Below, one piece after another: positions 952 through 31,651 of a stretch of 64,000 bases of DNA. The position numbers were made by a program, and so were the translations under genes. The stretch covers positions 372,001 to 436,000 of the forward strand of contig NZ_JAMQOQ010000001.1 in NCBI RefSeq assembly GCF_031624635.1. Direction: 5' to 3'. A model generated the notes under the pieces. It was given only the letters and a program-made list of their open reading frames with translations, was not told where the DNA came from and searched no databases. The number at the start of each line of letters is the position of its first letter. Position 1 is the first letter of the stretch. This DNA comes from Halogeometricum sp. S3BR5-2 (lineage in GTDB: Archaea > Halobacteriota > Halobacteria > Halobacteriales > Haloferacaceae).

Positions 952-1284
952 TTACTTGTTGCGATGGCCGAGCGGTTTCTTCTGTTCGACCTCTATCTCG
1001 ACGTGGAGGCTCTCGGGGAAGTCCATGTGACCCACCTCGCGGGCGATGTGGTCGTTGCCGTGTATCTCCAGTTTCCGCGAGTAGACGGTGTAGTCCCACG
1101 AGGAGAACTCGTCGCCCGGGGCGAGGTTCCGGTACTGCGGGACGGTGTGGTGCTCCGGCGGCGCGGCGTGCGGCCCCTTGCACTCGGCGCCCTTGCGTTC
1201 GAGCATCTCCTGCAGTTCCGACAGTTGGTCCTCCAGTTCGTAGCGGTTCCCGCTCTGGAAGGTGAGTTTGGTTACGAAGGTCAT
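952..1284 (-). CDS. uS10/mL48-like ribosomal protein paralogue
   Basis: The product is a 110-residue protein starting MTFVTKLTFQSGNRYELEDQ. The ATG at 1284 is preferred over an upstream in-frame codon at 1359 because a T-rich TATA-like block (about 1323-1329, minus strand) lies between them. The N-terminal strand-helix and the C-terminal segment (SRKLEIHGNDHI followed by HVEIEV) resemble ribosomal protein S10, but the middle carries an unusual segment (ECKGPHAAPPEHHTVPQYRN) and the canonical S10 loop is not obvious. Haloarchaea carry such S10-family proteins beside the true rpsJ, which normally sits next to EF-1alpha and is not here. Its role is unknown; a ribosome-associated function is inference. 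Confidence 0.7.
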   Translation of the reverse strand: MTFVTKLTFQSGNRYELEDQLSELQEMLERKGAECKGPHAAPPEHHTVPQYRNLAPGDEFSSWDYTVYSRKLEIHGNDHIAREVGHMDFPESLHVEIEVEQKKPLGHRNK

Positions 1285-1418
1285 GGCTGGGTGCGCGTAG
1301 GACGTGGAAAGACGCCGAGGCGTAAAAACGCACCTACACGTCGTCTCCGTGCCGTTCACTCACGAACGCCGACCGGTTCGACCGCGCGCGAAGACGCCGC
1401 TACAGGCACCGATAGCCT

Positions 1419-27553: not shown

Positions 27554-28981
27554 ATGTTCGAGGACCGCTCCGGCCGCCTCCCCGACAGGCGACCGCTCAA
27601 GGGGTACGGCGCGGCCGTCACGGCCGGACCGGACGGTCCACTCCTGTTCGTCGGCGGGTACGGCACCGACAACCGGGTGTTGACGGGCGGCGACGACGGA
27701 CTCGTCGACGCGACCCCCGACCCCCTCTCGGACCCCCACGGACACGCGTTCGGCGTGGTCGCGGCCGACGTCGACGCCGACGGCGACGAGGAGGTGTACG
27801 TCCACAACAGCGACGCCTACGGCGGTATCTCCACCGAGCGGGACCGCCTGTTCGACCGAACGGCGACCGGGTGGCGGGACCTGTTCGGCCTCCCCGTCAA
27901 CGCCGGCCGGGAGAACGTCCGCGCCGGGCGGTCCGTCGCGGCCGTCGACCGACTCGGAACCGGCCGCTACGGCCTCCTCCTCGCCTGTTACGGCGCGCCG
28001 ATGCGCTTCTACGAACTCGGCGACGACGGCGAGGTGACCGACATGGCCGAGGACGTCGGCGTCGACTTCCTCACCGGCGGCCGGTCGCTGGTCGCCGGTC
28101 CCGTCGTCACCGACCGGACGGACGTGTTCGTCGGCAACGAACGCGGGCCGAACTACCTCCTCCGCAACGACGGCGGCCGCTTCTCCGACGTGGCCGAGGC
28201 GTTCGGCCTCGGCGCGCCCGGCGAACACGCCCGCGGCGTCGCCCTCGTCGACCCCGACGGCGACGGCGCGTTCGACCTCGTGGTCGGCAACTGGGAGGGG
28301 CCGAACCGCCTCTTCGAGCGACGGGGCGGCGGGGGCGGGGACGACGGCGAGGGAAACGGCGACACCGACGCCGACCCGACGTTCGTCGACGTCGCGCCCG
28401 CCGAGTGGGCCGAACCCACGCGGACGCGGACCGTCCTCGCGGCCGACTTCGACAACGACGGCGCCCCCGAGGTGTTCGTCAACGCGATGGGCGCGCCGAA
28501 CCGACTCCTCCGGTACCGCGGGGGCGAGTGGGCCGTCGCGGACCCCGGCGACGCGGCGGAACCGCGCGGCCTCGGCACGGGCGCGACGGTGTGCGACGTC
28601 GACGGCGACGGGACGCTCGAACTGCTCGTCGTCCACGGCGAAATCGGCTCGCAACCGCTGTCGCTGTACGCCGCCCCGAACGACAACCGGTGGCTCCGCG
28701 TCCGGCCGCTGACCGAACACGGCGCGCCCGCGCGAAACGCCGTCGTGACGCTCGACACCGACCGCGGGACGCAGACGCGACTCGTCGACGGCGGGTCGGG
28801 CTACCTCTGCCAAACCGAACCGGTCGCGCACTTCGGCCTCGGCGGCGACACCGCCGCGGCGGCGGTACCGGAGGAGGTTCGGGTCCGCTGGCCCGGCGGG
28901 CGCGAACGGGGCGTCGACGTCAGCGAGGAGGAGGCGGAGACGGAACTCTCGGTCGAGCACCCGGCGAACCGCGGTGCGTGA
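27554..28981 (+). CDS. FG-GAP/VCBS repeat protein with ASPIC/UnbV-like C-terminus
   Basis: The 475-residue protein has repeated beta-propeller blades with Ca2+-binding DxDxDG loops (ADVDADGDEEV, VDPDGDGAFDL, ADFDNDGAPEV, CDVDGDGTLEL), each followed by hydrophobic strands. The C-terminal segment (DNRWLRVRPLTEHGAPARNAVVTL to RVRWPGGRERGVDV) resembles ASPIC/UnbV, as in CRTAC1-like proteins. No signal peptide or Tat motif is seen at the N-terminus, which is unusual because most relatives are exported; the start at 27554 or export by another route is uncertain. The role may be adhesion or scaffold; inference only. Confidence 0.78.
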   Translation: MFEDRSGRLPDRRPLKGYGAAVTAGPDGPLLFVGGYGTDNRVLTGGDDGLVDATPDPLSDPHGHAFGVVAADVDADGDEEVYVHNSDAYGGISTERDRLFDRTATGWRDLFGLPVNAGRENVRAGRSVAAVDRLGTGRYGLLLACYGAPMRFYELGDDGEVTDMAEDVGVDFLTGGRSLVAGPVVTDRTDVFVGNERGPNYLLRNDGGRFSDVAEAFGLGAPGEHARGVALVDPDGDGAFDLVVGNWEGPNRLFERRGGGGGDDGEGNGDTDADPTFVDVAPAEWAEPTRTRTVLAADFDNDGAPEVFVNAMGAPNRLLRYRGGEWAVADPGDAAEPRGLGTGATVCDVDGDGTLELLVVHGEIGSQPLSLYAAPNDNRWLRVRPLTEHGAPARNAVVTLDTDRGTQTRLVDGGSGYLCQTEPVAHFGLGGDTAAAAVPEEVRVRWPGGRERGVDVSEEEAETELSVEHPANRGA

Positions 28982-29251: not shown

Positions 29252-31651
29252 TCACTCGACGGACGACCAGAAGCGGTCGACGCCGAGTCGAAGCATGTCC
29301 GGGCTGACCGGCGAGAACTCTTCTCTCTCCTCTTCGGGGAAGTACTCCCGCACACCGTCCCACGAGTCGCGGGCGTAGCGCGCGTCGACGAAGGCGCGGA
29401 CGCCCACCTCCTCGGGGCCGCGGATGACCCGGCCGATAGCCTGTCTGGCTTTTCTGACTGCCGGCACGGTGAGGGCGGCCTCGAATCCGCTGCGAGACGT
29501 TCCGCCTCGCATGCTCCCGCTCGCTCCGCTCGCGGGACCGCTTCCAAATTCACGGTCGTACGCCGTCTTCACCGCCCGCGTGCGCGGACTCGACGTGTTG
29601 ATGATTGGGACGCCGCAGACGACGGCCGCGGCGAGTCGGTCGCCGCGGTAGTCGACGCCTTCCGTCAAAGTCCCGCGCAGACTCGTCACGAGTACCTTCT
29701 CCTCGCCGCCGAAGAAGTCGGCCTTCAGACGTTCGGTCGCGCCGTCGTCGGACGCCTCGTCGAGGAGCACCGTCTTCGATAGTCTCGACTCCAACTCGCC
29801 CGCCATCCACTCGGCCTCGGCGTAACTCGGCATCCCGACGAGGACGTTGCCCGGCGAGCGGGCTATCTCGGCGCAGGCGTCGACGTGCGCCCGGCGCGTC
29901 GGGTTCTCCTCGCCCGGCGGGCCGCGGTTCCCGTAGGTGAACTTCGGGGCGTCGACGGCGAACGACGCGCGGTTCTCCTCGGGAAAGGCGAGGCCGTACG
30001 TCCGCTCGGCTATCGGGCGGTCGTCCGATTCGAGGGCGTTCAGCCCCGTCACTTCTCGAAAGACGTCCAGCGGGGCGAGCGTCGCCGACATGAGGACGCC
30101 GCCGCCGAACTCGCCCAACCGCTCTGCGATGGCGTCGCCGGGGATGCAGTTGTGGAGAGCGAGATGCGCGTTGTACGCGCGCCGCCATGAGTCCTCCCGT
30201 TCGCTCTCGTCCCACGTCCGGTCGAGTTCTATCTCCCGGAAGTAGCCCGCGTGGTCGGCGCGCGCCCAGTTGGCCAGCGTCCGCCCGACGCCCGGCGCGG
30301 CGCGTCGGGTGTCCTCCTCTTCGGCGCTGTTCAGCACGCGGGCCGCGACGGCGCCGACCGTCTCCGCGCGGACCCACGTCCCCTCGTCGTAGCCCGCCTC
30401 GTCGGCCCACGCGGTCAGTTCGTCCTCGGCGGGTTCCTCCGGGTCGCGGAGGGGTATCTCGTCGTCGTCCAGTCGGGTCAGGTCGGCGCGCCAGTCGGGC
30501 AGTTCTTTGTCCAAATGCGCCGTCACCCGCCGGTCGAGTTCCTCCCGCAGGTCCCGAACGAAGTCGCGCGTCTCCTTCAGTTCCCGGAGCGTCACGTCTG
30601 ACTCCTCCAGTTCGCCGCGGACGAGTTCGGCGTCCTCGCTCTCCCGTCCGTCACCGTCGAACTCGACGGGTTGGATCACGCGCGTCAGTTCGTTCTCGGC
30701 GTCCCGCAGGGTGGCGTCGCCCACGCCGTCGCTGACGAGTTCGCGGACGCGCGGTTCGAGCATGTGGGCCTCGTCGCAGACGACGAACGTCGACTCGTCG
30801 AGGAGGGCGCCCGTGAACGACCCGGTCGTCGTCGGGTCGAACGCGTGGTAGTAGTTGCCGACGACGACTTCGACGTGCGGCAGGACGGCGCCCATGACCG
30901 AGTGCGGGCAGGTGCCGTACCCCGCCGACAGGCGCACGAGTTCCTCGGTGTCGATGAGGCCCGACTCCGTCACGTCGAACGGGACGGCCTCTATCGGGTC
31001 GCCGTCCTCGGGCAGGTCGTCGAGGAACGTCGCGTAGAAGGGGCAGTACTCCGTGTCCTCGTATTCGGACGTTTCGGGGAGGTACGGCGTCGGTTCGCCG
31101 GCCGTTTCGAGGTAGTCGGGACCGGTCGTCGAACCGCTGTCGAGGAGGCCAGTCTGCGCCGCCCGCGCCTCCTTGACGAGTTTCCCGGTCGAGGTGAGAC
31201 CGCCGTCTCCCACGAGGTTACGCGTCCGCTCTCTGAGCCCCTCGCAGCGGTCGTACACCGTCGAGTCGTCGATGGCGGCGACGTTCTCTCGACTGTACGG
31301 ACAGACGTCCGCCTTCCCGACGAGCGTCAGCGCCGAGACGGGGTTCCAGTCGTCGGGCAGGTTGTCGTTGATGGTACGCAGGTCCTGTTCGAACTGCCTG
31401 AGCTGCTGTTTCACGCTCGTCAGCACGAGCACCCGTTCGTAGTCGGAGTCGGGGTCGCGGACCCGGTCGATGCCGGCCGTGAGCGCGAGCATCGTCTTGC
31501 CCGTCCCGCACGCCCCCTCGACGACGAGGAAGCCGCCGTCCTCGGCGGCGTCGACGGCGGCGTCGATGCCGTCGGCTTGCTCGGGGTAGGGTTCGGGGTG
31601 GCCGAACACGGCCTGCCAGTTCACGCGCCTCACTCGCGTCGCGGCGGTCAT
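29252..31651 (-). CDS. XPD/Rad3-like Fe-S DNA helicase
   Basis: The 799-residue SF2 helicase has Walker A GACGTGKT (46-53), DEAH at 293-296, and four cysteines (C117, C136, C203, C248) spaced as an XPD/DinG-type [4Fe-4S] site. The C-terminal HD2 motif VVCGVPIIN and QAIGRVIRG (helicase motif VI) are present. It should unwind DNA 5'-3' in repair. Residues about 704-721 (SGPASGAS... in outline) are an insertion of 18 residues encoded by a repeat-like segment (29489-29542) between EFG and GFEAAL. The start is the ATG at 31651. Confidence 0.9.
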   Translation of the reverse strand: MTAATRVRRVNWQAVFGHPEPYPEQADGIDAAVDAAEDGGFLVVEGACGTGKTMLALTAGIDRVRDPDSDYERVLVLTSVKQQLRQFEQDLRTINDNLPDDWNPVSALTLVGKADVCPYSRENVAAIDDSTVYDRCEGLRERTRNLVGDGGLTSTGKLVKEARAAQTGLLDSGSTTGPDYLETAGEPTPYLPETSEYEDTEYCPFYATFLDDLPEDGDPIEAVPFDVTESGLIDTEELVRLSAGYGTCPHSVMGAVLPHVEVVVGNYYHAFDPTTTGSFTGALLDESTFVVCDEAHMLEPRVRELVSDGVGDATLRDAENELTRVIQPVEFDGDGRESEDAELVRGELEESDVTLRELKETRDFVRDLREELDRRVTAHLDKELPDWRADLTRLDDDEIPLRDPEEPAEDELTAWADEAGYDEGTWVRAETVGAVAARVLNSAEEEDTRRAAPGVGRTLANWARADHAGYFREIELDRTWDESEREDSWRRAYNAHLALHNCIPGDAIAERLGEFGGGVLMSATLAPLDVFREVTGLNALESDDRPIAERTYGLAFPEENRASFAVDAPKFTYGNRGPPGEENPTRRAHVDACAEIARSPGNVLVGMPSYAEAEWMAGELESRLSKTVLLDEASDDGATERLKADFFGGEEKVLVTSLRGTLTEGVDYRGDRLAAAVVCGVPIINTSSPRTRAVKTAYDREFGSGPASGASGSMRGGTSRSGFEAALTVPAVRKARQAIGRVIRGPEEVGVRAFVDARYARDSWDGVREYFPEEEREEFSPVSPDMLRLGVDRFWSSVE
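29489..29542. repeat. REP-like insert inside the helicase gene
   Basis: A 54-base in-frame segment with two small dyads (TCCCGC...GCGGGA and GCGAG...CTCGC) and the GAGCGGAGCGAGCG motif that recurs in haloarchaeal intergenic DNA. The pentamer AGCGG occurs at both ends, as if from duplication. Confidence 0.45.

What the first reader, a model, noticed from the sequence alone, without database searches (positions are those of the whole stretch)
29489..29542. In-frame repeat-like insertion in the XPD-like helicase
A 54-base segment encoding 18 Gly/Ser/Ala/Arg residues interrupts the conserved C-terminal part of the helicase, between EFG and GFEAAL. It carries the GAGCGGAGCGAGCG motif common in haloarchaeal intergenic DNA, two dyads (TCCCGC...GCGGGA, GCGAG...CTCGC) and the same AGCGG at both ends. 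A mobile extragenic repeat inside an essential-looking reading frame is unusual and may show how such repeats become protein linkers.
Basis: partly seen in the sequence, partly recalled or inferred. Interest (0 to 1): 0.55.

Follow-up and report, generated by a model that had tools for sequence, protein, structure and literature searches.

The report
Hairpin repeat inserted in helicase gene
A 51-base piece of a salt-loving archaeon's helicase gene is one copy of a scattered two-hairpin DNA repeat that sits mostly between genes in many related species and has also settled, without breaking the reading frame, at the same few places inside other important genes.

Summary
The in-frame insert is 51 nt (17 codons), not 54, and the AGCGG at both ends is not a reliable target duplication. 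It folds as two hairpins. Its sequence is single-copy in the genome by BLAST, and a 21-mer scan showed no excess. A covariance model built from inserts at the same helicase site in other genera, however, finds a dispersed family: 18 matches in this genome (E<=0.05), and copies at E<=1e-6 in 17 of 18 other haloarchaeal genomes tested. In a 60-copy sample 48 were intergenic. Sense coding copies all lie in one phase, in Kae1-Bud32, PheT, BirA, FadD-like, OAH sulfhydrylase, IleS-like, SdhA-like, MetE, Elp3-like and other genes, giving a small hydrophilic peptide. Six genes are occupied at the same site in more than one genus, while relatives have an empty site. The hairpins are kept by compensatory changes and are not explained by the peptide. 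Best reading: a non-autonomous, mobile palindromic element tolerated in protein loops. It works like Rickettsia palindromic elements but is a separate, two-hairpin haloarchaeal family. The mobilising enzyme was not found. No description was found in the held papers searched.

The parts
29252..31651 (-). host gene: XPD/Rad3-like superfamily 2 helicase, 799 aa
   Evidence: ORF; Pfam Helicase_C_2 7e-24, DEAD_2 1e-7; NCBIfam rad3 4e-29, below its cut-off; PDB matches to XPD, CHL1
29489..29539 (-). in-frame two-hairpin insert, 51 nt, 17 codons GPASGASGSMRGGTSRS; edges ambiguous by 5 nt because of AGCGG at both ends
   Evidence: comparison with empty orthologues; CM hits of 73-74 bits (the sequence is in the training set)
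29515..29537 (-). hairpin 1: 6-bp stem, GA/GA internal mismatch, 2 bp, GNA loop (GCGGAGC tip)
29491..29511 (-). hairpin 2: 9-bp stem, GAA loop; the strongly covarying hairpin of the family

Best explanation
The insert is one copy of a dispersed, non-autonomous, two-hairpin palindromic element of haloarchaea, about 48-60 nt. SHOWN: copies are mostly intergenic; some lie in frame in core genes, nearly always in one orientation and one phase; the same gene sites are filled in some genera and empty in close relatives; the hairpins are kept by paired base changes. INFERRED: the element is copied or moved as a folded single strand, which would explain why the hairpins stay intact. Most hits in genes are removed by selection. 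Those that add a multiple of three bases in the one frame that encodes only small, hydrophilic residues (A-S-E/G-A-S-G), in a loop that tolerates it, survive. After that the insert is inherited or exchanged with the gene, and repeatedly lost. In the helicase it most likely acts only as a tolerated linker between two helices of the second helicase domain.
For: Filled/empty pairs: the G149 and Halobiforma haloterrestris helicases are 96.8% identical over 1755 nt and differ at this site by exactly 51 nt; further pairs. On a 97-row tree the insert state changes at least 14 times. Family: 18 CM matches in this genome; copies in 17 of 18 further genomes at E<=1e-6, five of which had given training copies; 32 against 0 for the pattern control. 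Location: 48 of 60 sampled copies intergenic. Other host genes, same sense and phase. Kae1 site filled in 18 of 392 genomes, 11 of 95 genera, gaps 36-57 nt longer than empty sites, all multiples of 3. Structure: 48 aligned copies have 94.9% of cells paired against 74.2% shuffled, 13 of 15 pairs with double changes; one pair is CG 17, UA 15, GC 9, AU 5. Peptide-preserving recodings of 14 helicase inserts keep 121 pairs on average, at most 142, against 182 observed. RNA genes: an intact tRNA-Phe is followed by a partial tRNA-Phe copy interrupted in the T-arm.
Against: No transposase found: the 6 Y1_Tnp loci of 8 genomes carry no convincing copy nearby. No consistent target duplication or terminal inverted repeat. 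Helicase inserts resemble each other (mean identity 0.60 between families, 0.76 within one family) more than other copies in the same genome (0.56), so at this site old insertion with many losses, or exchange, may matter more than fresh insertion. Folding energy of single inserts is mostly not better than that of synonymous recodings (50 or fewer of 1000 as good in only 4 of 16). Three copies lie antisense in genes (L185, L272, L273), so orientation is not absolute. The phase result depends partly on a simple gene caller, and the models were trained first on coding inserts. The AlphaFold model is poor (mean pLDDT 63), so 'tolerated loop' is weakly supported.
Confidence: 0.74

Rival explanations
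1. Protein-level indel: the site is a flexible loop where Gly/Ser-rich linkers grow and shrink, and the hairpins are a by-product of GC-rich SGAS codons.
For: The same loop holds plain low-complexity linkers in other genera (7 residues longer in Halobellus; G206 and G040 long Gly-rich ones without the paired hairpins). Overall folding energy is usually no better than that of synonymous recodings.
Against: Specific pairs far exceed peptide-preserving recodings (182 against at most 142). Paired changes alter amino acids. Related copies are intergenic, and some interrupt tRNA-like sequence.
Confidence: 0.08
2. Ancient insert, no present mobility: the element entered the helicase once in an early haloarchaeon, was inherited, and was lost many times by replacement with empty alleles through gene exchange.
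For: Helicase inserts are mostly nearest to other helicase inserts, also across genera. Insert identity between Haloferax profundi and this genome (0.86) is like that of the adjoining gene (0.77-0.85). Same-site occupation in six genes.
Against: Within one genus two distinct insert types and empties occur (G003 against G000/G004; G001, G002 empty). At least 14 changes are needed. The insert of G003 is as close to apparently intergenic copies of G379 as to any helicase insert.
Confidence: 0.3
3. The hairpins work as an RNA: a cis-acting structure in the mRNA (stability, processing, translation pausing) selected in each gene.
For: Strong covariation; conserved GA/GA mismatch and GNA tip; copies near or in tRNA-derived sequence.
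Against: Close relatives lack the insert in the same gene; the host genes have nothing evident in common; antisense copies exist; Rfam shows no family for the element (only a tRNA match spans it in L164).
Confidence: 0.12
4. The recurrence at one codon junction reflects true site-specific insertion (homing to a short target such as C|GTTC or C|GTC) rather than selection for the few tolerant loops.
For: GTTC or GTC follows the element closely at the helicase, several Kae1 and the tRNA-Phe sites.
Against: The downstream motif partly comes from the model's own tail, built from helicase codons; other sites (for example L158) lack it.
Confidence: 0.2

Closest known systems
Rickettsia palindromic elements (RPE)
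   Same: Short palindromic repeats found between genes and in frame inside unrelated conserved genes; also found inside RNA genes (passages of PMC2229807 and PMC10969869).
   Different: RPEs are about 105-150 bp with long stem-loops and terminal inverted repeats, in Rickettsia. This one is 48-60 nt, two separate hairpins, GC-rich, in haloarchaea, and the same gene sites are filled in several genera. No sequence link was tested.
Palindromic repetitive elements with coding potential of Methanocaldococcus jannaschii (Suyama et al. 2005)
   Same: An archaeal repeat reported as fused into protein genes (only the citation and one sentence in PMC2229807 seen).
   Different: Different lineage; sequence and structure could not be compared because the paper was not read.
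PATEs, SMRs and IS605-type elements of Haloquadratum walsbyi
   Same: Haloarchaeal repeats, non-autonomous in the case of PATEs and SMRs; palindromes near the ends and no target duplication for PATEs and IS605-type elements (passages of PMC3119063).
   Different: The passages seen do not describe in-frame gene copies; no Y1 transposase locus bearing this element was found here.
REP/BIME sequences and RAYT-mobilised hairpins of enterobacteria
   Same: Dispersed intergenic hairpins whose folded single strand is recognised by a Y1 enzyme (recalled).
   Different: REPs are mostly extragenic (recalled); no Y1-type neighbour was found here.

Membership tests
Rickettsia-type in-frame palindromic element (as a kind) | same repeat both intergenic and in frame in several unrelated genes | tested here: met
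Rickettsia-type in-frame palindromic element (as a kind) | empty site in orthologues of relatives | tested here: met
   helicase; Kae1
Rickettsia palindromic elements proper | 105-150 bp with a long stem and terminal inverted repeats | tested here: not met
   size 48-60 nt and two independent hairpins
Rickettsia palindromic elements proper | sequence homology to RPE families | not tested
   no RPE sequence was compared
MITE | terminal inverted repeats pairing the two ends | tested here: not met
   each hairpin is self-contained; predicted structures of the window insert do not pair the ends
MITE | target site duplication | tested here: inconclusive
   overlap of 1 nt in the helicase pair L090/L113, 10 nt in Kae1, 0 in the L260 tRNA-Phe pair; AGCGG in the window is not shared by G004
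PATE / IS605-derived | shares ends with a resident Y1-transposase element | tested here: not met
   6 Y1_Tnp loci of 8 genomes, best CM match E 0.16; TnpB-only elements were not searched for
Archaeal bulge-helix-bulge intron | removed from RNA; BHB motif at the ends | not tested
   inserts in the helicase and Kae1 are multiples of 3 without stops, which an RNA intron would not need

The most novel reading that the evidence does not exclude
A haloarchaeal hairpin element is kept folded by ongoing selection or template-switch repair even while it encodes part of essential proteins. It enters and leaves the same codon junction of several core genes precisely, so that it behaves as a reversible, site-preferring protein-linker element moved as single-stranded DNA, with the extra-stable GCGNAGC tip and tandem G.A pairs as its recognition mark.
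Probability: 0.2. Interest if true: 0.85.

Novelty: new variant of a known kind. Interest (0 to 1): 0.62.

Why it matters
In-frame palindromic repeats are known from Rickettsia and have been reported for a methanogen. Here a separate family runs across the haloarchaea, with many filled/empty comparisons in culturable organisms and the same sites occupied in several genera. That makes two open questions testable: whether such repeats still move as folded single strands, and whether their protein-coded copies are neutral, harmful or useful. It also shows that haloarchaeal protein 'linkers' of the type ASEASGGS can be repeat DNA, which matters for annotation and for alignments of tRNA synthetases, Kae1 and helicases.

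Tried and rejected
Exact-sequence approach: BLAST of the insert and a 21-mer scan gave no family; only the structure model did. A target duplication AGCGG was considered and rejected as general. Transfer of the whole helicase allele from Halogeometricum to Haloferax profundi was rejected, since the flanks look like Haloferax. A Y1-transposase parent was sought and not found. Rfam gave no family for the element itself. Folding energy against synonymous recodings was mostly not significant; a test of the specific pairs was then made; both are reported. The AlphaFold model is of low confidence; it places the insert in coil between helices 689-702 and 722-740, no fold search was run, and I draw nothing firm from it. 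Literature: searches found no description of this family in the held papers (searches returned none); most subscription papers are not held. An RNA intron and protein-level slippage were considered; see rivals.

Full report
WHAT IS THERE. The window belongs to a Halogeometricum-like genome: in its genus group, G002's helicase row equals that of H. pallidum and G001's that of H. limi. The helicase ORF is window 29252-31651, minus strand. Against relatives, the segment between EFGS and GFEAAL is an extra 51 nt, 17 codons, GPASGASGSMRGGTSRS. It folds as two hairpins. As ssDNA the coding strand is more stable than shuffles (z -3.4).

SAME SITE IN OTHER GENERA. I collected 85 helicase loci (5 same-genus genomes, 80 named genome contigs) plus 12 from a pattern scan. 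One search scanned 392 genomes of the order: 16 had a match, 13 of them at the helicase site and three not (L103, L106, L114); one of the 13 is the window's own locus, already counted. The pattern misses codon variants, so counts are lower bounds. In the 97 rows the gap is two residues in 66; 17 rows carry a two-hairpin insert by my marking (including shorter ones in Halostella, G039 and G082, and one row present in both collections); the rest hold shorter or low-complexity linkers. Filled ones include Haloferax profundi, Halorarius halobius and Natronolimnohabitans; the eight other Haloferax rows are empty. On a maximum-likelihood tree (quick search) with the insert left out, the state needs at least 14 changes. 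G149 and Halobiforma haloterrestris differ by exactly 51 nt at this site while 96.8% identical over 1755 nt.

STRUCTURE. In 14 aligned helicase inserts 91% of cells pair (shuffled 80.8%), with two-sided changes in the stem of hairpin 2. A covariance model R1 from these gave further matches at E<=1 in all 15 carrier genomes searched, weak ones only in some. I fetched 40 of the listed non-helicase matches, chosen mainly by E-value from ten of those genomes. An alignment of 48 copies, coding and intergenic, has 94.9% of cells paired (74.2% shuffled), and 13 of 15 pairs show changes on both sides (it is fitted to the model, which favours it, but sliding the partner by one to three columns drops pairing to 38-50%). 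Recoding the helicase inserts with the same peptide and the gene's codon usage keeps 121 of the specific pairs on average, at most 142 in 1000 trials, against 182 observed. So the peptide does not explain the hairpins. Against this, overall folding energy is no better than that of recodings for most inserts. Hairpin 1 is the conserved mark: in the 42 copies with the 23-nt form the inner mismatch is GA on the right in 42 and on the left in 40, and the tip is GCGAAGC in 16, GCGGAGC in 7, GCGACGC in 6. GCGAAGC is known as an extraordinarily stable DNA mini-hairpin, and PyGAPu tandem G.A pairs are stable in DNA; both are recalled (one search showed only a search listing).

THE FAMILY. Model R2, from the 48 copies, gives 18 matches at E<=0.05 in this genome, mostly between genes by a simple gene scan. 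One (L201) is in frame in a biotin ligase, and one weak one (L215, E 0.05) in frame at the end of a mechanosensitive-channel-like protein. In 18 other genomes (five of which had given training copies), 17 have copies at E<=1e-6, with 24-31 in each of three genomes of one genus and none in G064. Of 60 of these that I fetched, 48 are intergenic, 7 coding sense, 4 antisense and 1 partial by my gene caller. Pfam supports six of the seven sense ones as inside genes (L243, L245, L248, L255, L261, L274); L233 lies before the cupin domain. L249 and L252 lie before the recognised domain and are doubtful; L272 is antisense in a TnpB-like gene, and L273 is alike by its sequence.

HOST GENES. In frame and sense, always in the same phase: Kae1-Bud32 (L158, L174), OAH sulfhydrylase (L163, L243), a DEAH-box helicase with MrfA Zn domain (L166), PheT (L167, L245), BirA (L169, L201, L248), methionine synthase (L173), an HTH protein (L175), a FadD-like ligase (L176, L187), IleS-like (L183), SdhA-like (L184), HisI (L255), DUF7531 (L261) and Elp3-like (L274) (L174 is named by its likeness to L158, and L274 by its Radical_SAM domains and likeness to L252). 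That is 19 sense copies outside the helicase, all in phase 0 with respect to the model, against 3 clear antisense (L185, L272, L273). The chosen frame reads A-S-E/G-A-S-G; other frames read R- or L-rich (from the sequence). Helicase, Kae1, FadD, OAH sulfhydrylase, PheT and BirA are occupied at the same site in more than one genus. For Kae1, 18 of 392 genomes (11 of 95 genera) are filled, with gaps 36-57 nt longer than the empty sites of 13 of 24 genomes looked at (11 gave no match), every difference a multiple of 3. Twelve of the 18 were read in full; some are odd variants (G134 without the paired hairpins, G033 and G069 with another hairpin set). G082 and G090 were seen only as cut-off text showing a different hairpin.

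RNA GENES. In L251 and L260 an intact tRNA-Phe is followed by a partial tRNA-Phe copy whose T-arm is interrupted by the element; the intact copy gives the empty site in the same locus. A tRNA-Arg-like gene in L164 and a partial one in L168 are interrupted before the T-arm (ARAGORN names neither). These look like tRNA remnants or attachment-site copies; I did not establish this.

HOW IT ARRIVED. Helicase inserts are usually most similar to other helicase inserts: mean identity 0.756 within one family but between genomes, 0.596 between families, 0.560 against other copies in the same genome. This argues that many are inherited or exchanged at the locus rather than freshly inserted. Yet the same genus holds two insert types and empties, and G003's insert is as close to apparently intergenic copies of G379 as to a helicase insert. 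I therefore hold a mixed model: rare insertion, tolerance in few loops, inheritance or exchange, frequent loss. Movement as a folded single strand is inference; no enzyme was found.

COMPARED WITH THE KNOWN. It works like Rickettsia palindromic elements (in frame, intergenic and in RNA genes; passages of PMC2229807 and PMC10969869) but is not a member: different size, two hairpins, different lineage. A methanogen case is cited there (Suyama 2005, not read). Haloquadratum PATEs and SMRs (PMC3119063, passages) are the nearest haloarchaeal repeats, without the in-frame feature in what I saw. Hence: a new variant of a known kind.

Noticed in passing
L251 1087-1330, L260 1122-1345; by sequence likeness also L258, L275, L160: Intact tRNA-Phe followed by a partial tRNA-Phe copy interrupted in the T-arm by the two-hairpin element, in genomes of two families; the conserved tandem arrangement is unexplained.
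   Followed up: partly
L164 1175-1300; L168 about 1230-1340 (minus): tRNA-Arg-like sequence interrupted at the same place by the element in two genomes; in L168 only the 3' half is recognisable by eye.
   Followed up: partly
L109 (G379 helicase), N-terminal to the main insert: Two further 33-nt in-frame insertions with a different inverted repeat (GCCGGC...GCCGGC) in the variable region of the same helicase.
   Followed up: no
L190, L191 (Kae1 of G033, G069); Kae1 of G082, G090: The Kae1 site also accepts hairpin inserts of other sequence, which suggests that several families use the same loop.
   Followed up: no
L169, L201, L248 (BirA): The biotin ligase site seems to carry element copies or pieces in tandem in three genomes.
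   Followed up: no
L272, L273 (G239): The element lies antisense inside two TnpB-like ORFs, just before a GVDIG motif; possibly a link to an IS605-type carrier.
   Followed up: no
window 28412-28468 (minus): Weak R1 match (21.5 bits, E 0.007) inside the neighbouring gene (FG-GAP/VCBS-like by recall); probably chance.
   Followed up: no
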